Shown: piece after piece, positions 3,021 to 28,230 of the stretch
How the letters are laid out: every line of letters starts with the position of its first letter
Position numbering within the stretch: position 1 is the stretch's first letter
Assembly (NCBI GenBank): GCA_944325545.1
Contig: CALVAM010000014.1
Coordinates: 1 to 64,000 of the forward strand
Direction of reading: 5' to 3'
Origin: Candidatus Gastranaerophilales bacterium
Lineage (GTDB): Bacteria > Cyanobacteriota > Vampirovibrionia > Gastranaerophilales > Gastranaerophilaceae
Length of the DNA: 64,000 nucleotides
Translations under genes and position numbers: made by a program
The notes under the pieces: model-generated
Told to the model about the DNA's origin: nothing
Seen by the model: only the letters and a program-made list of their open reading frames with translations
Databases searched by the model: none

Positions 3021-4522
3021 TGGAAAAATTTTTATACAAAAGAAAAACTGGAAATTATAATTTAGTTATGGCATATCCAGCTATAGAAGCTTTTGCGATG
3101 GCTTCTTTAGGATATTTATGGCTTTATAAAATTGCAAGTTCTATTGATGGAATAAATGCTGTTAGATTATATACTGATTCTAGCAAAACTCTTTTAAATA
3201 GTATTGATTCAATGGCTTTTTCAATGTCTTTCGATTTCGATTTTTTAGGTGTTTTTAAAATTTTAGAAAGTCTAAATATACCATTTTATTCTAAAGAAAG
3301 AAATGATGATTTTCCATTGATTTTTGCAGGAGGACCTGTCTTAACTACAAATCCAAGACCGTATGAAAAATTTTTTGATTTTATGATTATAGGTGATGGG
3401 GAAAAAAGTTTTGTTCAAGTGCTTGATATTTTAAGACAGAAAAAAAATAAAAATGAGACTTTAGAGTTACTTAAAAATATAGAAGGAGTGTATATCCCGG
3501 GAAATAGAGTGAAAAAAGCTACTGTAGCTTTACAAGATGTAATTTATACTCCAATTTTGTCTGATAAAAGTTATTTTAAAGATACTTTTATTATTGAATT
3601 GGCAAGAGGGTGTATGAATAGATGTGCTTTTTGTACTGCATCTTATACTAATTTACCTTTCAGACATAATGAGTTTTCTAAAATTATTGATGCTATTGAT
3701 TTAGGTTTAAATTATACGAATAAAATTGCTCTTTTAGGGGCTCAAATAGCTTCTCATCCTAAATTTGAAGATATTATGTATTATTTAAGGTGTAAAATTG
3801 AGAACGGTTTAAATCTTGATTTAGGGATTTCTTCTTTAAGAACAGATGCAATTAAGCCGGAGATAATAAAAACTTTAGTCTTAGGAGGACAAAAGCATTC
3901 TACAATTGCAATCGAATCAGCTAGTGATCGTTTAAGAAAATTTATCAATAAAAATCTAAAAGAAGACCAAATTTTAAATGCCATAAAAATTTCCAGGGAG
4001 AATGGTTTAAAGGGCGTGAAAATTTATTCTATGATTGGTATTCCAAATGAACAACAGGAAGATATTCAAGAGTTTATTAGGCTTGGAGAAAATATAAAAA
4101 ATGAAAATAAAGGGTTTAATATAGAATTTTCGTTTTCAACTTTTGTTCCAAAACCACAAACCCCTCTACAGTGGGCTCAAAGAGAAGATACTAAATCTTT
4201 AGAAAAGAAACAAAAATTTCTTCAAAAGGAACTAGCTAAAAAAGGAATTCAATCTAAATTTTCCAGTCCTAAATGGGATTATTGGCAAACTATTTTGTCT
4301 AGAGCTGATCATAATATTGCTCCTTATTTAGTAGAAGTTTATAAATTGGGTGGAAACCTAGCCGCATTTAAAAATGCTCAAAAAGTTTTAAATATGGATT
4401 TTTCAAAAGAAATAAACGGTTTTTCTTTTGAGGAAACTTTACCTTGGGATATTATTCAATATTACCCTAATAAGCAATTACTTATAAATGAAGAAAGAAG
4501 ACTAAATAAAAAATTGATTTAA
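3020..4522 (+). CDS. Radical SAM protein with B12-binding-like N-terminal region
   Basis: 500 residues. The N-terminal 170 residues resemble a cobalamin-binding-type Rossmann domain (FAGGPVLTTNPRPYEKFFD and IIGDGEKSF). The radical SAM core follows, with the 4Fe-4S motif CMNRCAFC (Cys at about 198, 202 and 205). Later strands (SIAIESASDRLR-like, GVKIYSMIGIP) and the C-terminal FSTFVPKPQTPLQWA segment are typical of B12-binding radical SAM enzymes. The substrate is unknown. I chose the ATG at 3020, which overlaps the upstream stop, over the TTG three bases earlier. Probably co-transcribed with the permease. Confidence 0.8.
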   Translation: MEKFLYKRKTGNYNLVMAYPAIEAFAMASLGYLWLYKIASSIDGINAVRLYTDSSKTLLNSIDSMAFSMSFDFDFLGVFKILESLNIPFYSKERNDDFPLIFAGGPVLTTNPRPYEKFFDFMIIGDGEKSFVQVLDILRQKKNKNETLELLKNIEGVYIPGNRVKKATVALQDVIYTPILSDKSYFKDTFIIELARGCMNRCAFCTASYTNLPFRHNEFSKIIDAIDLGLNYTNKIALLGAQIASHPKFEDIMYYLRCKIENGLNLDLGISSLRTDAIKPEIIKTLVLGGQKHSTIAIESASDRLRKFINKNLKEDQILNAIKISRENGLKGVKIYSMIGIPNEQQEDIQEFIRLGENIKNENKGFNIEFSFSTFVPKPQTPLQWAQREDTKSLEKKQKFLQKELAKKGIQSKFSSPKWDYWQTILSRADHNIAPYLVEVYKLGGNLAAFKNAQKVLNMDFSKEINGFSFEETLPWDIIQYYPNKQLLINEERRLNKKLI

Positions 4523-4672
4523 ATGTAAAGATTTGTAACAAAAAGAATAAATGGTGAAATTAGGGTTTTATTATATACTTTATATATATGTAAGATGTAA
4601 ATAACAGATTTTAATCCCTAAATCCCTTCCTAACTAATTTTCCTAGCTTCTCATTTTGAGAAGTTTTTTTTT
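4523..4672 (+). ncRNA. Candidate small RNA locus A, with shared upstream boxes
   Basis: This intergenic stretch carries ATGTAAAGATTTGTAA (4523-4538), a 36-nt gap, ATACTTTATATATATGTAA (4575-4593), then about 55 nt rich in CCCT/CCTT and a Rho-independent terminator (4647-4672). The same two boxes with the same 36-nt gap, also followed by a terminator hairpin, occur at 38675-38831. A short non-coding transcript starting just after the TATA-like box is the simplest reading. The boxes could instead be a repeated promoter or other element. Confidence 0.4.
4647..4672 (+). terminator. Rho-independent terminator
   Basis: CTTCTCA / TGAGAAG stem with a TTT loop, followed by nine T residues. It ends the radical SAM transcript or the putative small RNA. 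Confidence 0.8.
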
Positions 4673-5075
4673 ATATGATTTTTGCTAAAATGTTATAAAA
4701 TTTTCGTTTTATATTCTTTTTAATAGGATTTATTTTATCTAATTCAATATTTTTGTGATTAATTAAAATTTTTCTAATTCGTCCAGTCTTGTTATATAAA
4801 TTTTTATATTTCTTTTCAAATATATCTTCGGCATATTTTATATCAAAATTACTGTATAAGTCTTCATGATTTTCTTTATAACTAATAAAGGGGTATCTAT
4901 GAGTTTCAAATTTTTTTCTGGCTAAAAGTCCTATTGTAGGATTTTCGGTACAATCATTTAAGTGGTTTAGAGAGTATTTAATATTTTTTTTAGATATTCC
5001 AAATGGATTATCTAAAGTTTTATTATACATCTTTGCATTATATTTTTGAGTTTGAAACTTTTCTATTTTTAACAT
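4671..5075 (-). CDS. Hypothetical protein, 134 residues
   Basis: A Lys/Asn/Ile-rich basic protein without signal peptide or membrane segment; I recognise no family. The N-terminus MLKIEKFQTQKYNAKMYNK resembles, weakly, the short Asn/Phe-rich leader seen in several other proteins here. It lies 11 nt downstream of the GNAT-like gene on the same strand, so the two are probably one transcript. Its stop lies within the T-tract of the opposing terminator. Confidence 0.6.
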   Translation of the reverse strand: MLKIEKFQTQKYNAKMYNKTLDNPFGISKKNIKYSLNHLNDCTENPTIGLLARKKFETHRYPFISYKENHEDLYSNFDIKYAEDIFEKKYKNLYNKTGRIRKILINHKNIELDKINPIKKNIKRKFYNILAKII

Positions 5076-5086
5076 ATTTTTATCCT

Positions 5087-5758
5087 TTATATTCCCAGCA
5101 TATTAACTAAATCGTGTTCTTTAGAAGTTGATTTATTATTTATTAATTTGATATCGTTTTTTAGTTTTTCGATTGTTTTATCAATATTTTCATTGTCAAT
5201 AAAAATATCTTTTGATTTAAAAATTTTATCTTTTTTGAAACCTAATTTAGAATAAAAATTTTTTGATTTATCATTTAGATTTTCTGAATTAATACATAAA
5301 GCAAAATCTTTTTGTTTAGATATATTTTTTAGTATTTGTAATATTAAAGATTTCCTCACAACATTTTGTAAGTCATTTCGAAATAAGTGTAATAAATTAA
5401 TGTTTATATCAGCTTTTTTTATATATTCTGCTATTCCGATTATATTTCTTGAATTTTTTATTGCTAATATTATTCCATTTTCTTTAATATTTTGAGATTC
5501 TGTTATTGTTTTTTTTAAAGAATCAATAATATTGGCATTCAAGTTTGTATTTTTTATTGCAAGATTATCTTCATTAAGTTTTGTATTTTTTAGAACAGAA
5601 AAGAATTTATTTAAAAAATTTAAGTCTGTTTTATTCAAGGAGTACAATTCAATTTTTTCTTTAGAATTTATATTTGCGTACGATAAAAATTTTGCCTTGA
5701 AATCAATATAATTTCTTTTTTGGTTTAAATGTTGATAATTATAATTTTCTATCTTCAT
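5087..5758 (-). CDS. GNAT-like acetyltransferase with N-terminal DFKA leader
   Basis: 223 residues. The C-terminal half has the GNAT layout: a strand IILAIKNSRNIIGIAEY, a central helix, a strand with FALCINSEN, then the diagnostic NFYSKLGFKK near residue 165. GNATs transfer an acyl group from a CoA thioester to an amine. The acetyl-CoA P-loop is not clearly conserved, so the fold is better supported than the activity. The first 24 residues end in DFKAKF and match the leader motif shared with 7570, 15366, 23775 and others. A second GNAT-like protein with the same kind of leader lies at 6944-7570, across rpsG-rpsL. Confidence 0.65.
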   Translation of the reverse strand: MKIENYNYQHLNQKRNYIDFKAKFLSYANINSKEKIELYSLNKTDLNFLNKFFSVLKNTKLNEDNLAIKNTNLNANIIDSLKKTITESQNIKENGIILAIKNSRNIIGIAEYIKKADININLLHLFRNDLQNVVRKSLILQILKNISKQKDFALCINSENLNDKSKNFYSKLGFKKDKIFKSKDIFIDNENIDKTIEKLKNDIKLINNKSTSKEHDLVNMLGI

Positions 5759-5837
5759 AATAATACCTATGTATTTATATCAAATACTGTAAAAAAATAA
5801 ATTGCTACTTATTAAACTTACTTAATTCATCAGAAAC

Positions 5838-5872
5838 AAAAAAGGAATCAGACTTCTGATTCCTTTTTCTTT
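5838..5872 (-). terminator. Terminator after rpsG
   Basis: A perfect stem of about 13 bp (AAAAGGAATCAG / CTGATTCCTTTT) with U-tracts on both sides. Placed directly after rpsG, it shows that the ribosomal transcript ends here without fusA or tuf. Confidence 0.85.
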
Positions 5873-5886
5873 AATATTAAACTAAA

Positions 5887-6357
5887 TTAATATCTATAAT
5901 GAGCAAAAGCTTTATTAGCTTCAGCCATTCTATGCGTATCTTCTCTTTTCTTGCAAGCTGCACCGTTTCCGTTTGAAGCATCGATAATTTCATTTGTTAA
6001 TTTTTCAACAAAAGATTTACCACTTCTATTTTTAGCCGCTGCAATAATGTTTGTAGAAGCTAAAGCAAAACCTCTATCTGGTTTTACATCAATAGGAACT
6101 TGATAAGTAGAACCACCAATTCTTCTTGCCTTTACTTCTAACAATGGAGTTGCATTAGTAATACCCTTTTGGAATACTTCAAGCCCTTTTTCTCCAGTTC
6201 TTTCTTCAATCTTTGCAATTGCAGAATAGAATATTTTTTCTGCTAAAGATTTTTTACCACGTCTCATAACTCTGTTGATGAACTTAGATACATCTACACT
6301 GTTATAAATAGGGTCAGCTACAGGAATTCTTTTTTCCGGTTTAGATCTTCTAGACAT
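5887..6357 (-). CDS. rpsG: 30S ribosomal protein S7 (uS7)
   Basis: 156 residues, full length for the family. It opens with [10 protein letters not shown] and contains VSKFINRVMRRGKKSLAEKI, the RRIGGSTYQVP segment that contacts the 16S 3' major domain, and the C-terminal KREDTHRMAEANKAFAHYR. S7 nucleates assembly of the 30S head. Its ATG overlaps the rpsL stop (TAATG), so translation is coupled. The usual downstream neighbours fusA and tuf are absent. Confidence 0.98.
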   Translation of the reverse strand: MSRRSKPEKRIPVADPIYNSVDVSKFINRVMRRGKKSLAEKIFYSAIAKIEERTGEKGLEVFQKGITNATPLLEVKARRIGGSTYQVPIDVKPDRGFALASTNIIAAAKNRSGKSFVEKLTNEIIDASNGNGAACKKREDTHRMAEANKAFAHYRY

Positions 6358-6740
6358 TATTTCTTACCTCCTTTAGCTCTCTTTGCACCATATTTAGAAC
6401 GGCTTTGTGTTCTATTTGCAACACCTGCTGTATCTAAAGTACCACGTACAATGTGATATCTTACACCTGGAAGGTCTTTAACTCTTCCGCCTCTTATAAG
6501 AACAACACTGTGTTCTTGCAAGTTGTGACCGATACCTGGGATATAAGAAGTTACTTCAAATCCATTAGTAAGTCTGACTCTGGCAACCTTTCTCAATGCT
6601 GAGTTTGGTTTTTTAGGGGTTGTTGTATAAACCCTTGTACATACGCCGCGTCTTTGTGGACATTCCATTAAAGCCGGCGATTTGGTTTTGTCTTTTAGCT
6701 TTTTACGTTCTGAACGCACAAGCTGATTCATTGTAGGCAT
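6357..6740 (-). CDS. rpsL: 30S ribosomal protein S12 (uS12)
   Basis: 127 residues from the ATG at 6740, chosen over an upstream in-frame codon because AGGAGA sits just before it and MPTMNQLVR is the normal N-terminus. Family landmarks are [17 protein letters not shown] (with the Lys where streptomycin resistance arises) and [20 protein letters not shown]12 acts in the decoding centre. A promoter and a leader of about 135 nt lie upstream. Confidence 0.98.
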
Positions 6741-6879
6741 ATTTTTTCTCCTTTTACCTATTTTACTAATTATCTTTAGGATAAACACTTTCAGCTAGTA
6801 GTTGTAATACAAACTGGAGTTTATTTACCCCACCCTGAGCCGTCAAATCCGGCAAGAAAATTTCGACTAGGGTAACTTT
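6741..6879 (-). promoter_or_regulatory. rpsL mRNA leader
   Basis: The 5' leader of about 135 nt between the predicted promoter and rpsL. It contains a GCCG...CGGC hairpin (around 6840-6855) next to a GGGTGGGG run. The length and structure would suit autogenous control of the S12/S7 operon, but no known leader motif is recognised. Confidence 0.35.
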
Positions 6880-6908
6880 ATACTATGACGAAAATTTATT
6901 GATGTCAA
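6880..6908 (-). promoter_or_regulatory. rpsL promoter
   Basis: On the minus strand, TTGACA (6903-6908) is followed after 17 nt by TAGTAT (6880-6885). The -35 is perfect and the -10 matches 4 of 6. It lies upstream of rpsL-rpsG. Confidence 0.65.
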
Positions 6909-6943
6909 TTATTTTGGCTAATTTGTTAATTTTTTATAAGAAC

Positions 6944-7570
6944 TTAAATATCTAAATTTTCAGATAAATCTATTTGTTCGGGTTCGATATTTTCATAAGA
7001 TAAATTTTCTGACATTTCTTTTAAACTACTTTTTACCTTTGGATTTGTTATTTCCATTTTTATTTTAGTAGGTAGTGTTTCAAGTTCTTTAAAACCTAAT
7101 TTTTTATATTTATTTACAGTGTCAAATGGTCCATTCGTAATGGCTTCTAATTTAATTTTTTTTCCATTAATTTCTAAAAAATCTAAAAACATTTGATAGA
7201 AAAGTGTTTGACCTGCAAGTTTTACTTTTTTTCCGTGTTCTACAGGCCAAGTACAGATACAGTCTAATTCTGTGATTTTATCTTTTAAAAATGTGATAAT
7301 GCCACAAGGTTTATTATTTTTAACTCCTAAATAAGTTGAATTTTCATAAAATTGTGCGTTGTCGACTGCATATTGTAACATTTCTTTCCATCTGTCGTAT
7401 TCAAATTTATTAAGATTAGGCATTAAATTTTTTAAATTTATTTTTTCAGGTAATTGTTTTATAAATTTTAAATCTTGTTTATTATTTAACTTATAAATTT
7501 TTAAATTATTACAATTTGCTATGTGTAGGGCTTTAAAATTTGTATTACGATTTTGTTGATTTATTAGCAT
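6944..7570 (-). CDS. GNAT-like acetyltransferase with N-terminal NFKA leader
   Basis: 208 residues from the ATG at 7570, which follows AAGGAG with 7-nt spacing; the longer reading from 7588 would start inside the ribosome binding site. The leader MLINQQNRNTNFKALHI opens the protein. The middle and C-terminal parts fit a GNAT fold: YLGVKNNKPCGIITF, a LDCICTWPVEHG strand, a long helix (LFYQMFLDFLE) and VNKYKKLGFKELE as the last conserved strand. The substrate is unknown. The C-terminal 40 residues are acidic and probably disordered. Paralogous in layout to 5087-5758. Confidence 0.65.
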   Translation of the reverse strand: MLINQQNRNTNFKALHIANCNNLKIYKLNNKQDLKFIKQLPEKINLKNLMPNLNKFEYDRWKEMLQYAVDNAQFYENSTYLGVKNNKPCGIITFLKDKITELDCICTWPVEHGKKVKLAGQTLFYQMFLDFLEINGKKIKLEAITNGPFDTVNKYKKLGFKELETLPTKIKMEITNPKVKSSLKEMSENLSYENIEPEQIDLSENLDI

Positions 7571-7629
7571 TTTAGTCTCCTTACTCATATAAAAAGCCTA
7601 AATATTTTTATTGCTAATATTCAAAAATT

Positions 7630-8253
7630 TTATCTTAAATTTAAAATACTATTTACATCTTCTTCTTTTAAAAGTTTAGCCCTGCCCAAAATTTTTGTAT
7701 TCACAACAACTTGAGCATAGGATTCTGCTAATTCTAATTTCATATATGCATCTTTAATAGAGTGAGAACCTATAATAAATCCGTGATTTTCCATTAATAC
7801 CGCATTATAATCATTAAAAAATTTTACTGTATTATGCACTAATTCCATTGAAGAAGGTAAAGCATACTCTGCAAGCGGAATTCCTCCAAAATAAAAAACA
7901 TTCTCTGCCATTATCGCTTCGGTTAAATCTTTACTTGCTGATGCAAAAGAACTTAAATAAGGAGCATGTACGTGAATTATATAATTTATATCAGGTCTTT
8001 TTTTATAAATTTCTATATGTAAAAACTTTTCACTGGATGGCTTCTTATTTTTTTCTAAAGACACACCTTCAAAATTCGTATATACGATATCTTTGGATTT
8101 CAAATATCCGTTTGCAGAACCGGATATTGTTATTAACATACCATCCTTATACCTTGCTGAAATATTACCCGAATATCCGGGAGTAAAGTTTTTATCTCCG
8201 CATAATTTACCATATTTAATTATTTCTTTTACTAATTTATTTCTATAAAACAT
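7630..8253 (-). CDS. Class II aldolase/adducin family protein (fuculose-phosphate aldolase-like)
   Basis: 207 residues, the usual size for L-fuculose-1-phosphate or ribulose-phosphate aldolases and related epimerases. Visible are GNISARY (N-terminal phosphate loop), TISGSANGYL, the catalytic-type Glu in KPSSEKFLH (about 74), the metal-binding HVHAPY (about 92-94) and the third metal His in MENHGFI (about 155). The product is a zinc-dependent retro-aldol enzyme of sugar-phosphate metabolism, or methylthioribulose-phosphate dehydratase, which shares these motifs. Its start overlaps the end of the LptD-like gene by 11 nt, placing it last in the envelope operon. Confidence 0.85.
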   Translation of the reverse strand: MFYRNKLVKEIIKYGKLCGDKNFTPGYSGNISARYKDGMLITISGSANGYLKSKDIVYTNFEGVSLEKNKKPSSEKFLHIEIYKKRPDINYIIHVHAPYLSSFASASKDLTEAIMAENVFYFGGIPLAEYALPSSMELVHNTVKFFNDYNAVLMENHGFIIGSHSIKDAYMKLELAESYAQVVVNTKILGRAKLLKEEDVNSILNLR

Positions 8254-10420
8254 CTTCTACCGTTTTTACATCTTCTACTTGTGCATATTGAAGAACCGGT
8301 GCTGTTGGTGATTTTTCAAAGCTATCCTTTTCTTCATCTTCTTTCAAATTATCATCTTTCTTTTGAGCTTTTTTATCTTGTTTAATTTCTAAACGTTCAT
8401 AATCAACTTTCGTACCTTTGGCATTCATCATCACTTCAAACATAAAATAAGTATTTTCTCTTATGAAATCATATCCTATATGAAACTTAAAATCATCCGG
8501 TCCTACTGATAAATAAAAAGAATTTTCTTGAAAAGCTCTTTCATTAGGAGAATCTCCGGAAAGGTTTATTGAACCAAACCAAGATAAAGCTAAATATCTG
8601 CTAAACCTAAAAGTTTCTCTTATGTATACATTTGATTTCCCATAACGATACGCATCAAAAACAGGTAATGGAGAATTATCATCATACACAGAATGGAAAT
8701 ATCCGACATCTTGCATCCATCTTTTATATTGAGTATGTAATCTTGGACCAATTCTTCCAATTATTTGTGTATCACCGGTACCGTATATAGCGGCAGATAA
8801 TTGTGAAGCTATATCAAAAGAAAAAGCTGTTTGTTTTTCTTCATTCCTATAATTATAGAAATTTTGAGAAGCTTCCGCCATATATCTTGCTCTAAAAGTC
8901 CCTATCTGAGCACCATTTAATGCTTTAAAATTAACATCTTCTTCAATATCATGGTAATAACCTAAATCCAAACGATGAGCGAATGTAGAATTTCTATCTT
9001 TTAATAAAAAATTATTACTTGAATAAGCATTTTGATAGACTAAATCAATACCGTATTTGGGTCTGCGTCTGCCTAAAAACCATTCATTCATATAATCGTT
9101 CATACCATATTGCAGGTATAAATTATCATCTAAACGTTGCTTACCTCTAACAAGAATTTTGCTTCCTGCAGTTCCATAAGCAACCTGAGTTTTATTTGTA
9201 GCACTTTGATAACGACCAATACCACCTATACCAAATCCGCTTTTATAATTTAAAATTGGAATTGCTTTTAAAACAGCCCCCCTTGGCATTTCAAAAACAA
9301 AGCCGGGACCAATATACATACCTAGACCTCTTAAAGATCCTAATTCCCAAGAGTTTGTTTCAGCATAATCATTATTTTTATTTGTATAAACTTTTAATGC
9401 AGGAATTTTTACTACTTTACGTTTACCCTTAAAAATTGTAGCTTTTTTTATCGCAAGAACTTCCAAATCTCCTTTTTGAGTAATTTTCAGGTCTTTCGCT
9501 TCAACCCTTATAAGCCCTTTCTCCATATCATCGGTTAAAGTTTGGTTTTTGGGTAAAATCATATCTTGCATTCTAGGGCCTGCCATACCGGATCTAAAAT
9601 TAACAGGAAAAGACTCATCTACAGTGATTGAGCCGTTCTCTTGTACTATTTTATCTCCATAAACATAACCTTTTTTGGCTTTTATTTCTATTGTTGCAGT
9701 ACTTGTAATTGGATTTTCAATTAAAGCATTCTCTTCATTCATATCAACGAAAATATAATCACCAGTTATAGTTTGCCCATTTTTTAATATTTTGACATTT
9801 CCCTCTGCTTTAATCGTATTATTCATTCTATCATATGTAATTTTATCAGCTTTCACAGAAGTCTGTTGTTTTATAAAATCAACATTAACATTTCCTGTTG
9901 CTATCAAACAATATGAATCAGAATCATAATCCATATTTTCGCAATCCAGAATAATACTCTCCGTATCCTCTTCTTGTTCTACTTGATTTTCTGTCTTTTT
10001 TTTCCTATTCCAAAAACGTTTTGTATTTTTTGAATCTTCTGCTGAAATTTCATCGGCTTCAAAGCCGTCAGACATCATGTCTTCATCAAAATCTTCTTTT
10101 ATATCCTTTGAAACATATTTTGAAGTTTCAGTACCTCCTACAAAAACGTTTTCTTGCGGAGCTACAGGAGCTAATTCCATTTTTTTAGCATTTTTTTCTT
10201 TTAATTTCTTTTTTAAAAGTAAACGAGCTTTTTTTACAGGAGGCATTGTAGCTTCTCTACTTGATGAAACTTCAGAATTTTCTTGTTTTTCTTTTAATGC
10301 CGGAGGAGTAAAAAATGCATCTCCGGTAAAATCTGAAGGATCTACAAAAACAGATTCTGCAAACACAGAATTACCTATAATTAAAAATGCTATTAATGAT
10401 ATTACTACTTTATTTGTCAA
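8243..10420 (-). CDS. LptD/OstA-like outer-membrane protein
   Basis: 725 residues. A Sec signal peptide (MTNKVVISLIAFLIIGNSVFA) is followed by a low-complexity Lys/Glu-rich linker (about 40-145). An OstA/LptA-like beta-jellyroll comes next (about 150-280: ATGNVNVDF, KADKITYDRMNNTIKAEGNVKI, GDYIFVDM), then a C-terminal region of alternating aromatic strands up to about 690 consistent with an LptD beta-barrel. LptD inserts lipopolysaccharide into the outer leaflet. Cyanobacterial-type LptD proteins are smaller and divergent, as here. The tail (690-725) is acidic. The start codon is TTG with GGA upstream, 14 nt after the M23 gene. Confidence 0.75.
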   Translation of the reverse strand: MTNKVVISLIAFLIIGNSVFAESVFVDPSDFTGDAFFTPPALKEKQENSEVSSSREATMPPVKKARLLLKKKLKEKNAKKMELAPVAPQENVFVGGTETSKYVSKDIKEDFDEDMMSDGFEADEISAEDSKNTKRFWNRKKKTENQVEQEEDTESIILDCENMDYDSDSYCLIATGNVNVDFIKQQTSVKADKITYDRMNNTIKAEGNVKILKNGQTITGDYIFVDMNEENALIENPITSTATIEIKAKKGYVYGDKIVQENGSITVDESFPVNFRSGMAGPRMQDMILPKNQTLTDDMEKGLIRVEAKDLKITQKGDLEVLAIKKATIFKGKRKVVKIPALKVYTNKNNDYAETNSWELGSLRGLGMYIGPGFVFEMPRGAVLKAIPILNYKSGFGIGGIGRYQSATNKTQVAYGTAGSKILVRGKQRLDDNLYLQYGMNDYMNEWFLGRRRPKYGIDLVYQNAYSSNNFLLKDRNSTFAHRLDLGYYHDIEEDVNFKALNGAQIGTFRARYMAEASQNFYNYRNEEKQTAFSFDIASQLSAAIYGTGDTQIIGRIGPRLHTQYKRWMQDVGYFHSVYDDNSPLPVFDAYRYGKSNVYIRETFRFSRYLALSWFGSINLSGDSPNERAFQENSFYLSVGPDDFKFHIGYDFIRENTYFMFEVMMNAKGTKVDYERLEIKQDKKAQKKDDNLKEDEEKDSFEKSPTAPVLQYAQVEDVKTVEDVL

Positions 10421-15307: not shown

Positions 15308-15365
15308 ATTTTTATTAGCAAAAAATTTATTTATAAGTTTTATTTATTTTGTATTGGAGAATTTT

Positions 15366-16625
15366 ATGCAAATTAATAAGACTAATTTGAACTTTAAAGG
15401 TTATGATGCTAGACCTTTACAAGGACTTATGTTTACTGATAAAAAATATGCAAATGTTGTTAAAAATTTAATAAAAGATTTAAATGTGGATATTTATACT
15501 CCCAATATAGCTTCAAAGTCTATAAAAAAAGATTTTTATCAACTTTCTAATACAAAACAAATTATGTGGGCTCAAGATTATATTACTTTTTTAAAACATG
15601 ATATTAAAGCAGTTTTATTTGATAATACAAGAGAATCTTTAAAAAGATTTTTAAGAGCAACAAGCGATGGGATAAAAAAAGATTTAAATTTTATTCCAAT
15701 AAAATCTGAACCTCATATAAGGGGCGGTAATTTTTTTGTCTGCGATAATAATGGAAAAAAAGAGCTTTTAATAAATGAAAATCGACAACCTTTTTCTTCA
15801 GATATTTTAAAAAAAATTTATAATGTAGATAATATTATTACTATTCCAAGAATTGATTATCATTTAGATTTATTTTTAAGACCTTTAGATAAAGGAAATA
15901 TATTAGTTTCTGATATTAATATGACTAAAAAAGGAATGGCTGATGGAATTTTAAAAATAGAAAATTATATAAAAAATAATAAATTAGCACCTAGTGAAAT
16001 AAATCAATTAGAAGAGATTAAAAATAATATTGATTTAATGATTAAAAAACTTGATATAACATTACAATTTGATAAATATAAACCTCAAGAAAAAATTGAT
16101 GATGTTGTTAATATATTATTTAAAGCTGGTTATAATCCAATAAGAGTTCCTGCTTGTTATCATTATTTAGATCGTATTAAAACAAAACAAACTCTTCAAA
16201 GTGCAATAGATAAATTTAATACTAATGCAGATAAATTAATAGATTTAAGTAAAAATTATTCTCCATTAGTACAAGATAAAATAAAAAAAGTCATAGAAAT
16301 TGAAAATTTTAAAGTTCAAAATGACGAAAATTTTGGTGCAGAGTTTTATAATTTTTATGAAAATAATTTTATAAATGCAATTGTTGGAAAAAAGAAAGAT
16401 GGTTCATTATTTTATATTACTAACTCATCTCTTCTTGATTCAAAATTAGAAATTACACCAGAAATAGAATCAAAAATAGATTTCAGTACAAAGAAAATGT
16501 TTTTAGATAGTATAAAACCATATATCAATGAAAAGAATATTTATTTTATAGATGAAAATTCTACTAAAGAACTTTTTAATAATTTAGGTGGGGTACACTG
16601 TGTTACTTCAGAAATTCCATTATAA
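15366..16625 (+). CDS. Unknown protein with N-terminal NFKG leader
   Basis: 419 residues from the ATG at 15366, which has GGAGA 5 nt upstream; the in-frame TTG 12 nt earlier overlaps that site. The N-terminus MQINKTNLNFKGYDARPL carries the short leader found on several unrelated proteins here. The rest is a soluble alpha/beta-looking protein rich in Lys, Asn and Ile, with no signal peptide, membrane segment or recognisable family. A central helical stretch (about 180-235) may form a coiled coil. It stands alone between opposing neighbours. Confidence 0.75.
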   Translation: MQINKTNLNFKGYDARPLQGLMFTDKKYANVVKNLIKDLNVDIYTPNIASKSIKKDFYQLSNTKQIMWAQDYITFLKHDIKAVLFDNTRESLKRFLRATSDGIKKDLNFIPIKSEPHIRGGNFFVCDNNGKKELLINENRQPFSSDILKKIYNVDNIITIPRIDYHLDLFLRPLDKGNILVSDINMTKKGMADGILKIENYIKNNKLAPSEINQLEEIKNNIDLMIKKLDITLQFDKYKPQEKIDDVVNILFKAGYNPIRVPACYHYLDRIKTKQTLQSAIDKFNTNADKLIDLSKNYSPLVQDKIKKVIEIENFKVQNDENFGAEFYNFYENNFINAIVGKKKDGSLFYITNSSLLDSKLEITPEIESKIDFSTKKMFLDSIKPYINEKNIYFIDENSTKELFNNLGGVHCVTSEIPL

Positions 16626-18933: not shown

Positions 18934-21900
18934 TTATTTTGCAATTATTGATAACTTTTCTCCTTCAACAGAAATTTCTTTTTGTTTATATGGATTAGAT
19001 GCAAAATTGTATTGAGGATTAAAGTATTCTTTATGTTGTTTTCCTTTAAATACAATTTTTTTGATATGTTTTAAAATCATAACTCCATTTTTAGAAGTTA
19101 AACCATCCATAACGATTTTACCGCCACCTTCTTTTACGATACCACGCATACCATTACCTAAATCTTTGACAACATATTTAGCTTTATCTCTTGCATTGGC
19201 ATTCATAAATACTGTTCCTACAGGGATTGAAACTCCTGCTGCAAGTAGAATTGAATCTACTTCTGATTTTGGTTGAATTGGAACGTATTTGTTTTCTGGA
19301 TTAATAGAATCTATATTGTTTTCTTCAAAGAATTTTTTGCGTTTTTCTTCAGTATCTAAACCATATTTTGCGAAGTAATCAACTCTATTTCCGAATTCTA
19401 CATCTCCTGCATTCATTAATGTAACGGTCATATCTCCATTTGCATTTTGCATCATATATGCAATTTTTGCGAGTTCTTTAGATAATTCTCTACGTTCATT
19501 TTCTAAAGATTCTCTGGTTTTAGAATCTAATGATTTGTTACCGCTTAATTCATCATTAATTTGATAAATACGTCCTTGAACGGCATCTCTATTTTTAGAG
19601 TTTGTTAGAACATCTAAAGCATATGGAGTACCATTATTCAAAGCTTGCAATTCGTTATCTGAACGAGTTTTTACAGTTTCGTTCATTCTATTCATAACGG
19701 TTTTTCTATAGTTACCGATTAAGTTATCTTCGTTTAATTGTTCCCAAGGAAGAGCATTTCTGTTTTGAAGATAAATGTTTTTAGCTTTTTCTTCATATCC
19801 GCTCATTGCTAATTCATCGCCTGCAAACATTGTTGGAATACCGAATAAACCTTTTAAATATTCCATTATCATCTCAGCTTTTGCTTCTGCCGGTTCTGTT
19901 GCAGTTTTATAAACATTATCAATTATTGCGTCTTTATTAGTTATTTCATGACCTGATTTATATTCAGCTTGTTTTATTGCCATTGTAATAGCTGTTCTTA
20001 TATCTCTGGCGGCATAACCATTTTTTCTCATTGCATTTACAGGATCTTCAATTTTTGGTAATTCTGATGAATTATTTTTTACTGTATTTTCATCATATTT
20101 TTCTACAAAATCTTTTACTGCAGAAAATATTGCATTTTTTGCTCCTTGAGATTTTCCTGAAGCTACATATGAATCTCTAATTAATGCTGCAAGATTTACT
20201 GTATATAAGTTATAGTTATTATAAATTTCTGAATTACTCACAGTAGAATCTGATATATCTTCAATTTTATCTTTTTTATTAAGAAGCATATTGGCTAGTT
20301 TTCTGTTATGAATACTTTGAGAATCATCGCCTGAGAAATAGCCTTTTACAAGATAATTTCTAAAATTATTATTAGCATTTTCTTGAATTGATTTTAATAA
20401 TTCAGATTTTTCTGCTTCTGTAAGTTTTAATCCGTATTTTTCTTCTGCAATTTTTGTTATTTCATTAAAAGCGTTTTCAATACTTGATAATTCTTTAATA
20501 TTAATAACTTGGAAATTATTAGTAACACCTTCGCCTAGGTAATTACCATTTGTTAAATCGACAATCGCAGAATTGATTAACTTTCTATCATTATCAGATA
20601 CGATGTTTTTAAGATCGTTATTAAGAACATCTTTAAGTAATTTGCTCATTGCGATAGCTTTAGTACTTAAAGTTCTAAAGTATTCTTGATTAGCTGCATT
20701 TAGTTTTAATTCAATAGGCATTTCATCTATTGATTTTGAATCTGATAAAACTTGTAGAGCATCTAATCTATGTTGAACTTTATTTCCATTATCGTGGAAT
20801 AGTTTCATATCTAAGGCCAAACCGTGAATTAATCTTGGTTTATCATGGTTACCCATAAATGTGTACAGATTTCTTAAATAATCCACGCTTCTTGTTTGAA
20901 GTAATAAATCCATACGATTTCTAAATCTGTCGTGGTTAGGAGATTCACCATTTCCTTCATCAAAAGATGGTGCAAAAATTGTTAATAAATCTGTGAAGAA
21001 ATAAGAATATCCTGCTTCTGATGTAATACCTGTTTCATTAAAGAATTTTGCTAAAGCGTCAGGTTCTCCGTTAAATTTAGGATTATTTACGTTTGTATCA
21101 CCATTATATGGACAAGAATTTGGCCCATAAGTACTTTTCATTAAATCAGGAATATCAGTAATTTCAGCAACTATGTATGAATTAGGGTTTTCTGATTTAA
21201 CTCCTTGGACGAATTTTGTCCAGAATTTTATAACATCATTCCAGTTATCGTCAAAATCATTATCACCGTTTCTAATTGCATCCATATCCATTACGTCTTT
21301 TGCAGCATCTAATCTCCAGTCAAGTCCTAGAGCTGATCTTTCATTTAACGCTTCTGCTATTCTGAAGCTTGCTGTATCTGTACCACTGATTCTTTTTGAT
21401 ATAGAGTTTGCGATATACGAAATATCTTCTTTTGATAAGTTTCTTAAACCTTTTTGCATTTTATTTGCTAACATCTCTGCTTCATCTTCAGGATTGTGAG
21501 CATTGATTTTTAAAGATTTTAAAGTTGTATCATTTTTTAGTTTGTCATAATCGTAAGTTATTTCGCCGTTTGATAATATTTTTGTTTGTAATTTATCGCC
21601 TGTAAGAGATTTTAAAAATGCGTATTTTGTAATATCTTGTCCGATTAAATCTATTACATATTCTCCGTATTCAGTATAATCTCCATTAGCATCTAATAAT
21701 TTTTCATTAGAATTTTTGTTAACTTCTTTGATTATTGCATCTGCAAAATCTTTAATTTCATTATTAAATAAGCTATTTACTTTTTTATAATTTTTAGAAT
21801 AAGGTTCTACAAGATGGGGATTATTATTTTTCATTAAATCAAATCTTGAAACTCCGATTGTTTCATCTGTAGTTGCACGATTTGAGAAATAAGAAGTTGA

Positions 21901-23775
21901 TAATACTCCAACAGTGTTTTCTCCAAATTCTAATGCATCTAAAGGCATTTTCATTAATGATTTTACAGTTACATCATCTTTTTGTAAGTTACCTTTTGTT
22001 TTTAATAAGTATTGAGCATTTAAAATGTTATTTAAAACTTTATCAGAAATTTTTGCTTCTTGAGGAAGCTTACCTTCTTCAATAAGTTTATTGATACCGT
22101 CAACTGTTTTTACACCACTTACTGTTTGAGCAATGTACATTTTTTGTATATCATTAACTTTAGCGGTCCAATATTTACCTGCTTGAATTGCCATATCTTG
22201 AACTTCTCTAGCTCCACGTTCAATCATTTGTTGTTCGTGATATCTTTGAGCTCTATCAGGTATTGCTTTTAAAAGTTTTTCATCATAGCCTGAAATATGA
22301 TAATTCATTTTTACCATATCAGTGTTTGCATCCCAAGTTACAAATCCACCTTCTGTTTTCTTATCTATTTTAAAATTAGAAAATTGAGAAGCTAGAATAG
22401 TACCTTCGGCTGTATCCAATTTAATATTTTTACCTTCTTTTTTATTCAGGTTATTAATTAGTTCAATTCTATTATCGTATTCTTTAGGATTAATTTGGAA
22501 TACGTAATTAATGATAGTATCATCGTGATTATTTATTGATAATTCATTACCGGATTTTATATTTTTGTAAGTATCAATTGCTTTATCTAAAGCCTTTACT
22601 TGTTCATCACCAGCTTGTGAAGCATCATATATTTGATACAAAGTTTCTTTGTTTGAATCATAATCATTATTCGCTATTTTTTTGTATGTTCCATCTGCTT
22701 GTAATTCATATTTATAAGGTGCATTAATAATTCTATGTCTTAAATTTTTACTATTTTGAGGAACTGTTCCATACCCTAAATTTGTATCTTTAATACTATT
22801 CATTCTAAACCAGTAATAAGATTGAGGTTTTTTCTCTGCCCATCTTAAAGCATATTGAAAATGAATACCTTCTAGACCTTCAGAAGTAAATGTTCCATCA
22901 TAAACATATTTCATTCCATTAGAATATAAATCTCTAAAAAATGATGCAAAGTTTTCGGTATTTCCCATTCTTGAAGCTATTTGCATATTATTTTTGTTCC
23001 AATAGCTGTGAGATGAAACACTGTCACCGTTTGCAATTGGAGTTGTAAATAAAACTTTATATCCGTTTTGTTTTAAATAAGGAATACCTTTTTGCAATCC
23101 TGCAATAGAACCCTTAAATCTATTGGAAAAAGTTCTAATTACTCCTTCCATTTCTTTTTGGTAATTAGAATCATAATAAATTTCACCTGTATTAGGTTCT
23201 GAAAAACCTCTATACATAACTCCTGGCATGAAAGAATCTGGTATTGCCAAATATCCTGCACCTTGTATCATAGGAGTCGTACCTTTTCTGGTCACTAGGG
23301 TATATTTATAATTTTCTATTGGATCTTGATATCCTTCATAAGCTTTTGTTACTTTCCCATCCTTATCTTTAATTTGATACCAGGTTTTATCATTATGAAT
23401 TCTAAATCCATACTCTCCACCGAGAGATTTCATTTTAACGCCGGTATCTGGACCTTCATATACGACCTCGCCTGTTTCTTTATTTTTTCTTACTATTTTA
23501 TAAGCAAAAGGAGCATCTTTATCTAAGTTAGTAACATCTTGTAAATTAACCTCAACACCCTCTGGTTTTAAGAAAAATGATGTAAGTGGAGTTTCATCTA
23601 TTTTATAATTGTAATTTTCTGTAGGAATAGCCCTAAAAATTTGTACTTCACAAGTTTCTTTATCGCTATCGTATGGATAGTTAAATTTCATAATAGTTTC
23701 ACCAACATTGTTTTTTACATGTTGATATCCTTTAAACCCTAAATTTGATACACCGTTAATTTTATTTACAAACAC
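18934..23775 (-). CDS. Giant GH13-like (alpha-amylase superfamily) protein with N-terminal GFKG leader
   Basis: 1613 residues, two to three times the size of ordinary GH13 enzymes. GH13 landmarks are visible in order: a beta3-like MKYVYDGTF (about 290), the nucleophile strand GLDWRLDAAKD (about 817), the acid/base strand YIVAEITD (about 872), FMGNHDKPR (about 975) and GIPTMFAGDE (about 1318). The catalytic Asp, Glu and Asp all appear present, but the barrel is interrupted by long helical insertions (about 300-800 and 1000-1300). An N-terminal beta-rich region comes first. There is no Sec signal; the protein opens MFVNKINGVSNLGFKGYQHV, the leader shared with other proteins here. GTG start with AAGGAG upstream. 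Alpha-glucan processing is likely; where it acts is unclear. Confidence 0.75.
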   Translation of the reverse strand: MFVNKINGVSNLGFKGYQHVKNNVGETIMKFNYPYDSDKETCEVQIFRAIPTENYNYKIDETPLTSFFLKPEGVEVNLQDVTNLDKDAPFAYKIVRKNKETGEVVYEGPDTGVKMKSLGGEYGFRIHNDKTWYQIKDKDGKVTKAYEGYQDPIENYKYTLVTRKGTTPMIQGAGYLAIPDSFMPGVMYRGFSEPNTGEIYYDSNYQKEMEGVIRTFSNRFKGSIAGLQKGIPYLKQNGYKVLFTTPIANGDSVSSHSYWNKNNMQIASRMGNTENFASFFRDLYSNGMKYVYDGTFTSEGLEGIHFQYALRWAEKKPQSYYWFRMNSIKDTNLGYGTVPQNSKNLRHRIINAPYKYELQADGTYKKIANNDYDSNKETLYQIYDASQAGDEQVKALDKAIDTYKNIKSGNELSINNHDDTIINYVFQINPKEYDNRIELINNLNKKEGKNIKLDTAEGTILASQFSNFKIDKKTEGGFVTWDANTDMVKMNYHISGYDEKLLKAIPDRAQRYHEQQMIERGAREVQDMAIQAGKYWTAKVNDIQKMYIAQTVSGVKTVDGINKLIEEGKLPQEAKISDKVLNNILNAQYLLKTKGNLQKDDVTVKSLMKMPLDALEFGENTVGVLSTSYFSNRATTDETIGVSRFDLMKNNNPHLVEPYSKNYKKVNSLFNNEIKDFADAIIKEVNKNSNEKLLDANGDYTEYGEYVIDLIGQDITKYAFLKSLTGDKLQTKILSNGEITYDYDKLKNDTTLKSLKINAHNPEDEAEMLANKMQKGLRNLSKEDISYIANSISKRISGTDTASFRIAEALNERSALGLDWRLDAAKDVMDMDAIRNGDNDFDDNWNDVIKFWTKFVQGVKSENPNSYIVAEITDIPDLMKSTYGPNSCPYNGDTNVNNPKFNGEPDALAKFFNETGITSEAGYSYFFTDLLTIFAPSFDEGNGESPNHDRFRNRMDLLLQTRSVDYLRNLYTFMGNHDKPRLIHGLALDMKLFHDNGNKVQHRLDALQVLSDSKSIDEMPIELKLNAANQEYFRTLSTKAIAMSKLLKDVLNNDLKNIVSDNDRKLINSAIVDLTNGNYLGEGVTNNFQVINIKELSSIENAFNEITKIAEEKYGLKLTEAEKSELLKSIQENANNNFRNYLVKGYFSGDDSQSIHNRKLANMLLNKKDKIEDISDSTVSNSEIYNNYNLYTVNLAALIRDSYVASGKSQGAKNAIFSAVKDFVEKYDENTVKNNSSELPKIEDPVNAMRKNGYAARDIRTAITMAIKQAEYKSGHEITNKDAIIDNVYKTATEPAEAKAEMIMEYLKGLFGIPTMFAGDELAMSGYEEKAKNIYLQNRNALPWEQLNEDNLIGNYRKTVMNRMNETVKTRSDNELQALNNGTPYALDVLTNSKNRDAVQGRIYQINDELSGNKSLDSKTRESLENERRELSKELAKIAYMMQNANGDMTVTLMNAGDVEFGNRVDYFAKYGLDTEEKRKKFFEENNIDSINPENKYVPIQPKSEVDSILLAAGVSIPVGTVFMNANARDKAKYVVKDLGNGMRGIVKEGGGKIVMDGLTSKNGVMILKHIKKIVFKGKQHKEYFNPQYNFASNPYKQKEISVEGEKLSIIAK

Positions 23776-23935: not shown

Positions 23936-25282
23936 TTAGATATCTACGCCAGACATCATATTAATCAATGTATCAATTGTATTTTGCATATTTACACTGT
24001 CGGTAGTTCTTTGTTGTAAAAAAGCATTGATTTTAGGCATCATTTCTATTGCAATATCCAATTTAGGATTTGTTCCGGGCTGATACATCCCAACGTCAAT
24101 CAAATCTTTGTTTTCTCTGTACATTGCCATAATTTTTCTCAATTTAGCTGCAGCTTCTTTGTGAGGTTGAGAAGCAATTGCAGACATAAGCCTTGAGATA
24201 CTTCCCAAAATATCTATTGCAGGATAGTGGTTAGCTTCGGCAACTTTTCTTGATAAAAATATATGACCATCCGTAATCCCCCGAACGGTATCTACAATTG
24301 GGTCATTAATGTCATCACCTTCCATAAGTACTGTATAAAAAGCCGTTATTGAGCCTTTAGGGCTATTACCTGCCCGTTCAAGAACTTTTTGTAGCCAAGA
24401 AAATATTGAAGGAGGATATCCTTTCATTGTTGGGGGTTCGCCAATAGAAAGACCAACTTCACGTCCTGCCATTGCACAACGAGTTACCGTATCGGTCATC
24501 AAAAATACTTTTTTACCCTGATCTCTAAAGTATTCACATACTGCTGTTGCTGTTAAAAGACATTTTTGTCGTATTAAAGGCGGCTGATCCCCTGTTGAAC
24601 ACACAAGAACAGATTTTTTCATACCCTCCGGACCAAGAGCATCTTCAACAAATTCCTTAACTTCTCTTCCACGTTCTCCGATTAGTGCAACTACGTTAAC
24701 ATCTGCATCAGAATTTCTGGCAATCATACCAAGCAATGTACTTTTCCCGACTCCTGACCCCGCAAATAATCCCATACGCTGTCCGCAACCAAATGTTAAA
24801 CAAGCATCTATTGCTCTCACTCCTGTTGAAAACATTTCTGTAATAATTGGTCTCTCAAACGGCCCAGGAGGAGGACCCTCTACAGGACGCCAAGTCGCTC
24901 CATCCAAATCCAAAGGCTTTCCGTCTATCGGTTCTCCCATTGGATTTATTAGTCTTCCTAAAAGAAAATCTCCAACCGGAATAATAATTGGTTTTCCTGT
25001 TGTTTGTACTAAACTCCCTTGACCTATTCCTGCTCCGTCATATAAAAGTAATAATTGTGCTACATCACCTTTGAATGCTACAACTTCAGCAGGTTTTCTT
25101 TCTCCATTTGCAGCTTCTATATAGCATAAATCTCCTATTTTAAGTCCCGGAAGTTTTACTTCTACGGTTAAACCGAGTAATTTAGATACACTACCTTTAA
25201 ATTGATATAAGTCAAGGTTTTCGATTTTTTCTCGAACCTTGACTTTTAGATTATCTAAATACTCTTGATTAACTCCATCCAT
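23936..25282 (-). CDS. fliI: FliI-type ATPase of flagellar or type III secretion export
   Basis: 448 residues. Walker A is GLFAGSGVGKST (about 168-179), Walker B lies in VFLMTDTVTR, and the family signatures GEPPTMKGYPPSIF, SITAFYTVLMEGDD and RKVAEANHYPAIDIL are all present. This hexameric ATPase unfolds and feeds substrates into the flagellar/type III export channel. The N-terminal beta-barrel domain is complete, and the glutamate of the P-loop ATPase mechanism lies in ALIGERGREVKEF. No fliH, fliJ or other flagellar gene is nearby, so it is isolated from any export operon. FliI versus a non-flagellar homologue cannot be decided here. Confidence 0.88.
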   Translation of the reverse strand: MDGVNQEYLDNLKVKVREKIENLDLYQFKGSVSKLLGLTVEVKLPGLKIGDLCYIEAANGERKPAEVVAFKGDVAQLLLLYDGAGIGQGSLVQTTGKPIIIPVGDFLLGRLINPMGEPIDGKPLDLDGATWRPVEGPPPGPFERPIITEMFSTGVRAIDACLTFGCGQRMGLFAGSGVGKSTLLGMIARNSDADVNVVALIGERGREVKEFVEDALGPEGMKKSVLVCSTGDQPPLIRQKCLLTATAVCEYFRDQGKKVFLMTDTVTRCAMAGREVGLSIGEPPTMKGYPPSIFSWLQKVLERAGNSPKGSITAFYTVLMEGDDINDPIVDTVRGITDGHIFLSRKVAEANHYPAIDILGSISRLMSAIASQPHKEAAAKLRKIMAMYRENKDLIDVGMYQPGTNPKLDIAIEMMPKINAFLQQRTTDSVNMQNTIDTLINMMSGVDI

Positions 25283-27475: not shown

Positions 27476-27507
27476 GTCGTAAAAATAATTTTTACGACTT
27501 TTTTTTA
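27476..27507. terminator. Rho-independent terminator
   Basis: GTCGTAAAAA / TTTTTACGAC perfect 10-bp stem with loop TAA and nine T residues. It ends the 50-residue gene and may also serve the opposing gene. Confidence 0.85.
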
Positions 27508-28230
27508 TGCTTGTTTATTTCCAATTTCATTTCCGGCAGTCATTAATGCAAACGGAATTGTCATTGATATTAAATTTATTAAAGGATGTGAGCCGAATTG
27601 CCTTGCAGCAAGACACATATCATCAACGTGTGCAGAAAAATCACTTAATTTTACAGGACGCCCTTTCCCTTGTTTAAAAACTATTTCATTAACTTTATTT
27701 GCTACAATATTACTAAAATATACTCCAGTCATTAGACCCAACATTGCTGCCGTAGATTTTGCAATTGTTGTTCTGTATGTTTTTTTGTATGGATTTTTTT
27801 CCAAAAATTTCTTAGAAATACTCGTTCCTGCTTTTGCAAAACGCACTGTAAAAAATGCAGGCAATGAAATATTTGCTATTTGTAATAAAGTTTCTTGGAG
27901 TTTAGCTTTTCTATTCTTTTTATTTTTATCTATGGCATACCCTCCAATTAAGCCTCCTAAACAAGAACCAGCACCAATTGTAATAATATCTTTTTCCTCT
28001 TCATATGGAGCTTTTGCCAAATAACTATTTTTTATATTTTTAAACATTTTTTTAGGATTTAATGAATACCCCTTTGATTTTGATAAATATGCTAAACTTC
28101 CAACAACTCCTAATGCAGTTGTAGTTGCAATTAAATGCTTTTCAGCCTTGTTATAATTACTATCATTCCAAGAACCGCCATGCCCGAAATTAATATTTCT
28201 ATTATAATTACCGTTAACTGAGTTCAACAT
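27505..28230 (-). CDS. Multi-helix membrane protein with N-terminal NFG leader
   Basis: 241 residues. The opening MLNSVNGNYNRNINFGHGG carries the shared leader (NFG at 14-16). Hydrophobic, glycine-rich stretches follow at about 32-50, 84-103, 118-132, 155-177 and 218-237, suggesting four or five membrane helices connected by basic loops. I recognise no family. It is not a typical transporter. AAAGG lies upstream of the ATG. Confidence 0.7.
   Translation of the reverse strand: MLNSVNGNYNRNINFGHGGSWNDSNYNKAEKHLIATTTALGVVGSLAYLSKSKGYSLNPKKMFKNIKNSYLAKAPYEEEKDIITIGAGSCLGGLIGGYAIDKNKKNRKAKLQETLLQIANISLPAFFTVRFAKAGTSISKKFLEKNPYKKTYRTTIAKSTAAMLGLMTGVYFSNIVANKVNEIVFKQGKGRPVKLSDFSAHVDDMCLAARQFGSHPLINLISMTIPFALMTAGNEIGNKQA

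What the first reader, a model, noticed from the sequence alone, without database searches (positions are those of the whole stretch)
18934..23775. 1613-residue GH13-like enzyme with barrel split by very long insertions and no Sec signal
Conserved GH13 strands appear in order, but about 500 residues separate the beta3- and beta4-like motifs and about 340 separate FMGNHD from GIPTMFAGDE. Ordinary GH13 proteins have far shorter gaps. The inserts are helical and Lys/Asn-rich. It also bears the GFKG leader, so it might be a non-classically delivered glucan enzyme.
Basis: partly seen in the sequence, partly recalled or inferred. Interest (0 to 1): 0.58.

Follow-up and report, generated by a model that had tools for sequence, protein, structure and literature searches.

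The report
Giant leader-tagged GH13 glucan enzyme
A gut relative of cyanobacteria carries a starch- or glycogen-acting enzyme swollen by large helical inserts, one with no similar solved fold found, and bearing a short tag shared with unrelated proteins that may mark it for export.

Summary
The ORF (18934-23775, minus strand, 1613 aa, GTG start) is a highly divergent but genuine GH13-type protein from Candidatus Gastranaerophilales. AlphaFold closes the barrel: residues 180-1379 give pLDDT 86.4 and pTM 0.85, and VIA gives Z 16.0 over 362 residues at 2.8 A to GH13 enzymes. The putative Asp823/Glu871/Asp978 triad and Arg821 are invariant in 40 of 40 aligned sequences. The long gaps are folded inserts. 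The largest (residues 500-818) models alone at pLDDT 92.3 and found no solved structure above Z 2.8. All 125 matches to it among 291 genomes of the phylum lie in the same order.

The protein has no Sec signal. Its N-terminal FK[G/A] leader recurs on unrelated folds; looser versions sit on other alpha-glucan enzymes. In 21 of 40 loci the gene lies downstream of a FliI-type ATPase whose close counterpart occurs in all 17 genomes tested, 12 of them without flagellar FlhA and FliI.

My reading is an active alpha-glucan enzyme tagged for delivery by a flagellum-independent type III export apparatus, as Chlamydia secretes its glycogen enzymes. Fold and active site are well supported; export is inference.

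The parts
18934..23775 (-). Whole gene, 1613 aa GH13-type protein
23722..23775 (-). N-terminal leader, residues 1-18 (MFVNKINGVSNLGFKGYQ); FKG at residues 14-16; Phe14 invariant in 40 of 40
23239..23700 (-). N-terminal region, residues 26-179, probably a beta-sandwich (sequence impression; not modelled)
   Evidence: inference
22786..23238 (-). Barrel beta1-beta3, residues 180-330; conserved YWNKNN; region I DGTFTSEG at 293-300 (22876-22899)
22303..22317 (-). Region V-like MVKMN, residues 487-491 (Lys489 and Asn491 invariant)
   Evidence: motif name recalled
21322..22278 (-). Conserved helical insert domain between region V and beta4, residues 500-818; no similar solved fold found
21292..21321 (-). 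Region II DWRLDAAKDV, residues 819-828: Arg821, putative nucleophile Asp823
21154..21177 (-). Region III YIVAEITD, residues 867-874: putative acid/base Glu871
20833..20859 (-). beta7 FMGNHDKPR, residues 973-981: putative transition-state stabiliser Asp978
19906..20808 (-). Third, length-variable helical insert between beta7 and beta8, about residues 990-1290 (beta7-beta8 gap 325-365 residues in long forms, 189-205 in short forms)
19798..19842 (-). beta8 GIPTMFAGDELAMSG, residues 1312-1326
18937..19743 (-). C-terminal region, residues 1345-1613 (probably C-domain; only to residue 1379 modelled)
   Evidence: inference
23936..25282 (-). FliI/SctN-family ATPase directly upstream, same strand; second, flagellum-independent type

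Best explanation
It is an active, divergent GH13-type alpha-glucan enzyme (hydrolase or transglycosidase, closest in fold to cyclomaltodextrinases, neopullulanases and alpha-glucosidases). Its barrel is interrupted by lineage-specific helical inserts that fold as separate domains, probably to bind a partner or a large branched glucan. It is not a Sec substrate. Its FK[G/A] leader is an appended N-terminal tag shared by unrelated proteins, and looser forms of it sit on several other alpha-glucan enzymes of this genome. The most likely role of the tag is delivery by the flagellum-independent, flagellar-type export apparatus (FliE, FliF, FliH, FlhA, FliI) that nearly all sampled relatives keep, so that the enzyme remodels alpha-glucan outside the cytoplasm. 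Shown by computation: fold, conserved triad, inserts, leader class, gene order and distribution of the apparatus. Inferred: catalytic activity, substrate, that the leader is an export signal, and which machine reads it.
For: Fold: model pLDDT 86.4, pTM 0.85; VIA Z 16.0, 362 residues, 2.8 A to 7d9b and Z 15.8 to 2z1k. Active site: R821, D823, E871, D978 in 40 of 40; Glu871 and Asp978 align with catalytic positions of solved enzymes. Appended tag: FKG in residues 5-24 of 8 of 412 ORFs against 0-3 in the seven other 20-residue bins; [NSTGA]FKG near the N-terminus in 8 of 412 against shuffled mean 1.15, maximum 5 in 300 shuffles. The tag precedes an epimerase fold in 5 of 5 loci, with F[KR]xG on the neighbouring GT5 starch-synthase-like protein, and sits on a tyrosine-phosphatase-like protein. 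Other enzymes with looser versions: two GH77, a GlgB-like GH13, a 599-aa GH13 and a GlgA-like protein. Apparatus: 121 of the 123 order genomes without a flagellar-type FlhA have the second FlhA as best hit (my count); FliE-FliF-FliH-FlhA cluster in this genome; the window's ATPase is 78-96% conserved in 17 of 17 genomes while the other FliI type appears in 5 of 17, exactly those with flagellar-type FlhA. The ATPase lies upstream of the enzyme in 21 of 40 loci. Precedent: five of six tested C. trachomatis glycogen enzymes were type III substrates in a Shigella assay (PMC4829429, passages).
Against: Region I lost its usual Asn-His (DGTFTSEG). The whole-protein Pfam scan lists no amylase domain at E<=1, although the six-frame search gives PF00128 at 36.3 bits over a cut-off of 22. 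Foldseek alone gives nothing below E 0.0046. The ATPase is not upstream in 19 of 40 loci, including all nine of the shorter clade, so the adjacency may be a genus-level accident. Glycogen phosphorylase (563 aa) and a 486-aa GlgA carry no leader: my prediction for the phosphorylase failed. Two other GH13 enzymes use ordinary Sec-like signals. Leader bearers include an epimerase, a cytosolic-looking enzyme. Seven of 192 order genomes have no GH13 match and six of those have a full-length FlhA. The genome also encodes a flagellin-like protein and a flagellar FlhA, so a flagellar apparatus is available too.
Confidence: 0.42

Rival explanations
1. An active GH13 alpha-glucan enzyme that stays in the cytoplasm. 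The inserts and the FK[G/A] leader dock it to glycogen granules, a membrane or partner proteins (for example the AAA ATPase encoded next door in relatives) rather than exporting it.
For: Leader bearers include an epimerase; an AAA ATPase gene (PF00004) of a cluster seen in 15 loci follows the enzyme in relatives; some leader bearers look membrane-anchored at their C-terminus, e.g. the 594-aa GH77-like and the 900-aa GlgA-like proteins; the big conserved insert suits a docking role.
Against: Position near the N-terminus and absence of a Sec signal resemble secretion leaders; a tyrosine-phosphatase-like protein bears it; in one genus the gene often follows the export ATPase.
Confidence: 0.4
2. 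A catalytically dead GH13 relative that works as a glucan-binding or scaffold protein.
For: Region I Asn-His replaced by Ser-Glu; very low identity to any characterised enzyme; one family member (L035) lost the His before Asp978.
Against: R821, D823, E871 and D978 are kept in 40 of 40 sequences down to about 35% identity.
Confidence: 0.1
3. The gaps are not inserts in one protein but an artefact (fused genes, frameshift or assembly error).
For: Unusual length only.
Against: Same order of parts and similar lengths in 39 independent loci; one confident model with a closed barrel.
Confidence: 0.01

Closest known systems
GH13 cyclomaltodextrinase / neopullulanase / maltogenic amylase group (2z1k, 1sma, 1j0h, TVA II)
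   Same: Closed (beta/alpha)8 barrel with beta3, beta5, beta7 and beta8 motifs aligned; region V-like MVKMN resembles the MPKLN of this group (motif recalled).
   Different: Below every NCBIfam equivalog cut-off (e.g. 42 against 540 bits); region I Asn-His lost; about 460 extra residues between beta3 and beta5 and 330 between beta5 and beta8 relative to 2z1k (counted).
Maltooligosyltrehalose synthase TreY and eukaryotic glycogen debranching enzyme
   Same: GH13 barrels with large extra domains (recalled); they rank 1 and 8 in Foldseek (5zcr, 5d0f).
   Different: TM-scores 0.20 or below with rmsd above 25 A: no shared insert architecture shown.
Type III-secreted glycogen enzymes of Chlamydia trachomatis (GlgA, GlgB, GlgX, GlgP, MalQ)
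   Same: A set of alpha-glucan enzymes delivered without Sec by a bacterium with a type III apparatus (PMC4829429, passages).
   Different: There secretion was tested; here it was not. No common leader of the FK[G/A] kind was mentioned in the passages I read. Phosphorylase lacks the leader here.
Flagellar export ATPase FliI / injectisome SctN (the neighbour)
   Same: FliI/YscN subfamily, 553.9 bits against a cut-off of 379.5.
   Different: Below both equivalog cut-offs (FliI clade 2 566.2 of 629.8; SctN 544.3 of 604.75); present in genomes without flagellar FlhA or the other FliI.

Membership tests
GH13 (alpha-amylase family) | (beta/alpha)8 barrel | tested here: met
   Z 16.0 over 362 residues, model range 1-1199
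GH13 (alpha-amylase family) | Catalytic Asp (beta4), Glu (beta5), Asp (beta7) and the region II Arg | tested here: met
   40 of 40 sequences; searches align E871 and D978 with solved enzymes; D823 and R821 by motif only
GH13 (alpha-amylase family) | Region I Asn-His (common but, as recalled, not universal, so not taken as defining) | tested here: not met
   DGTFTSEG, DGVFTSEG or DGAFVNEG in the rows shown
GH13 (alpha-amylase family) | Pfam PF00128 over curated cut-off | tested here: inconclusive
   36.3 bits over cut-off 22; not listed at E<=1 for the whole protein
GH13 (alpha-amylase family) | Retaining alpha-glucanase or transglycosidase activity | not testable with these tools
   Needs enzyme assay
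Cyclomaltodextrinase / maltodextrin glucosidase (NCBIfam equivalogs) | Score over the equivalog cut-off | tested here: not met
   42.2 of 540 and 52.3 of 568 bits; over 37 members best E 3.8e-15 and 1.4e-17
Type III secretion substrate | Secretion dependent on a type III apparatus | not testable with these tools
   Only leader and gene context:
Sec substrate | N-terminal hydrophobic signal | tested here: not met
   maximum 0.44 in residues 1-60 across 55 of 55 sequences
Known solved fold for the insert 500-818 | Structural match well above background | tested here: inconclusive
   best Foldseek E 1.8, best Z 2.8 among 775 chains; absence of a match does not prove a new fold

The most novel reading that the evidence does not exclude
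Gut Gastranaerophilales keep a flagellum-independent type III export apparatus that reads an FK[G/A] N-terminal signal and secretes a parallel, insertion-enlarged set of alpha-glucan enzymes. This GH13, with a helical insert of possibly new fold, would be its flagship, making an extracellular or host-side glucan economy like that of Chlamydia in a non-chlamydial gut bacterium.
Probability: 0.27. Interest if true: 0.87.

Novelty: new variant of a known kind. Interest (0 to 1): 0.6.

Why it matters
GH13 is among the best-sampled enzyme families, yet this member, found across nearly the whole order, has a confident 319-residue helical insert with no similar solved structure found. If the FK[G/A] leader is an export signal, it gives a simple sequence handle on what a group of gut bacteria known mainly from metagenomes (recalled) sends out of the cell, and on why so many members keep a flagellar-type export apparatus without the flagellar-type FlhA. 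That question becomes testable by a reporter fusion of about 20 residues.

Tried and rejected
Phage origin: no PHROGs family at E<=1. Gene fusion or frameshift: rejected, same architecture in 39 loci. TreY or glycogen debranching enzyme as closest kind: they rank high in Foldseek but with rmsd above 25 A, while VIA favours the cyclomaltodextrinase and alpha-glucosidase group. C-terminal membrane anchor for this enzyme: a hydrophobic stretch at 1506 (mean 1.76) exists in long forms but lies inside the probable C-domain and is absent from the short clade; rejected. Prediction that glycogen phosphorylase carries the leader: failed. Presence/absence correlation of the GH13 with FlhA across the order: uninformative because both are near universal (185 and 192 of 192). 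The relaxed motif [NSTGP]F[KRQS] alone is only weakly enriched (64 against 50.7, s.d. 6.2), so the looser leaders on GH77, GlgA-like and GlgB-like proteins are suggestive, not proven. A plain F-x-G motif preceded by [NSTPGA] is hardly enriched in the first 45 residues (21 ORFs against 18 and 11 in the next two stretches). Literature: in the library searched, no paper on a non-flagellar type III apparatus or on this enzyme in the group was recognised in the listings; one search returned 6,984 papers, mostly generic, with 15 listed. No claim is made beyond those listings. Families not listed by VIA are not excluded.

Full report
What is there. The window is contig 14 of a 1.82 Mb genome. Titles of the closest records name Candidatus Gastranaerophilales and Melainabacteria; some MAG titles are odd, e.g. 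L018 'uncultured Acinetobacter'. The ORF at 18934-23775(-) encodes 1613 aa. It is single-copy in this genome at full length.

Is it GH13? Sequence says yes, remotely: NCBIfam maltodextrin glucosidase 2.6e-14 and cyclomaltodextrinase 4.5e-11, both far below equivalog cut-offs. A profile of 37 sequences finds 2z1k at 4e-16 and other neopullulanase-type enzymes. A whole-protein Pfam scan missed the amylase domain, while the six-frame search found it over its cut-off. The beta3, beta5, beta7 and beta8 segments align with solved enzymes. R821, D823, E871, D978 and E299 are the same in 40 of 40 sequences (39 loci plus the window; the partial L040 was left out), and H977 is Gln in one. Region I has lost its Asn-His.

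Does the barrel close? AlphaFold2 on residues 180-1379 with 37 sequences gave mean pLDDT 86.4 and pTM 0.85. Foldseek gave weak E-values (best 0.0046). VIA aligned 317-372 residues at 2.6-3.4 A in the 50 rows shown, along the whole model, with Z up to 16.0. So the barrel is assembled from pieces up to several hundred residues apart. I could not see coordinates, so I did not superpose the catalytic residues.

The inserts. Relative to 2z1k, beta3 to beta5 grows from 116 to 578 residues and beta5 to beta8 from 117 to 448 (counted). The stretch from residue 486 to the beta4 Asp is nearly constant in length (322-344 residues in 40 of 40), while the beta7-beta8 stretch varies from 189 to 365. Residues 500-818 modelled alone gave pLDDT 92.3 and pTM 0.89, and 33 columns are invariant. 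No solved structure came close (Foldseek best E 1.8; VIA best Z 2.8 of 775 chains). This is possibly a new fold, not proven.

Distribution. 185 of 192 genomes of the order have a match at E<=1e-3 and 181 at E<=1e-20, by my count of the table. The weakest could be other GH13 proteins. Searching the insert alone in 291 genomes of the phylum gave 125 matches, 124 in the family (of 132 family genomes shown) and 1 in another family of the order. Of the 166 without a match, 20 were listed, 12 of them outside the order; 146 were not listed.

The leader. Phe14 of GFKG is invariant in 40 of 40, and 15 of 15 more distant relatives have F-x-G near the N-terminus. In 464 kb of this genome, FKG starts within residues 5-24 in 8 of 412 ORFs and in 0-3 in the seven other bins. 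Shuffling N-termini gives mean 1.15 and maximum 5 in 300 shuffles against 8 observed. A six-residue pattern N-hydrophobic-x-FKG occurs 21 times in the whole genome against 10 for the reversed control and 5 for a swapped motif; about six of the 21 sit near a plausible start. It is an extension: in five loci it precedes an epimerase fold whose nucleotide-binding strand starts within about ten residues of it. Leader bearers include a tyrosine-phosphatase-like protein encoded beside glycogen phosphorylase. Looser forms stand on two GH77 proteins, a GlgB-like GH13, a 599-aa GH13 and a GlgA-like protein. Phosphorylase and the ordinary 486-aa GlgA lack it, and two GH13 enzymes have Sec-like signals.

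The export apparatus. This genome has two full FlhA proteins and one truncated form, and two FliI-type ATPases. One FlhA is flagellar by its cut-off; the other is below both FlhA and SctV cut-offs and lies with FliE, FliF and FliH. By my count, 69 of 192 order genomes have a flagellar-type FlhA (best E<=1e-240); of the other 123, 121 still have the second type. The ATPase beside the GH13 is 78-96% conserved in 17 of 17 genomes tested, whereas the other FliI type (48-50% identity) appears in 5 of 17, exactly those with flagellar FlhA. So the neighbour belongs to the second, flagellum-independent set. It lies upstream of the GH13 on the same strand in 21 of 40 loci (16 adjacent, 5 with three genes between), downstream and opposite in one, and is not seen nearby in 18, some of which are cut by contig ends. 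A 2013 genome paper describes flagella in the group and one genome lacking filament, cap and L/P-ring genes (PMC3787301, passages).

Mechanism. Shown: GH13 fold, conserved triad, folded inserts, no Sec signal, an appended leader class, and a conserved second export apparatus. Inferred: it cuts or rearranges alpha-glucans, and the leader sends it through that apparatus. The precedent is Chlamydia trachomatis, where five of six glycogen enzymes tested were type III substrates (PMC4829429, passages). The main rival is a cytoplasmic enzyme for which the leader is a docking tag; I rate the two about equal.

Noticed in passing
L112 (own genome C19:1-20000) 4026-10105: Second flagellar-type export cluster: FliE, FliF, a 346-aa protein with no Pfam hit in the FliG position, FliH, divergent FlhA; the FlhA is nearly universal in the order even without flagellar FlhA.
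   Followed up: partly
L044 1105-2586 (own genome C15): 493-aa protein carrying only the C-terminal, cytoplasmic part of FlhA.
   Followed up: no
L097 3649-4149 (own genome C1): 166-aa dual-specificity/tyrosine-phosphatase-like protein with NFKG leader, next to the glycogen phosphorylase gene; could be a glucan phosphatase or an effector.
   Followed up: no
L108 2140-3924 and 8343-10199 (own genome C8): Two GH77 (MalQ-like) paralogues with MQIN..NFQR and MKIQ..SFRR N-termini; one ends in a likely transmembrane helix.
   Followed up: partly
L100 5616-8318 (own genome C3): 900-aa GlgA-like glycosyltransferase with leader-like N-terminus (ISFRSG), enlarged relative to ordinary GlgA, and a C-terminal hydrophobic segment.
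   Followed up: partly
L003 4162-7838 and same genes in L005, L006, L009, L015: FKG-leader epimerase plus GT5 starch-synthase-like gene between the FliI-type ATPase and the GH13.
   Followed up: partly
L004 8046-9530 (cluster c5, 15 loci): AAA ATPase with a PSFYG N-terminus encoded directly downstream of the GH13 in relatives.
   Followed up: no
15354-16625, 27505-28230 and 6944-7588 in the window: Further window ORFs with NLNFKG, NINFGHG and NTNFKA N-termini; the first has a weak C-terminal match to peptidyl-arginine deiminase (E 0.014, below cut-off).
   Followed up: no
L112 14924-16477: 517-aa protein with GFRA near its N-terminus and hydrophobic segments, encoded near the second FlhA cluster.
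   Followed up: no
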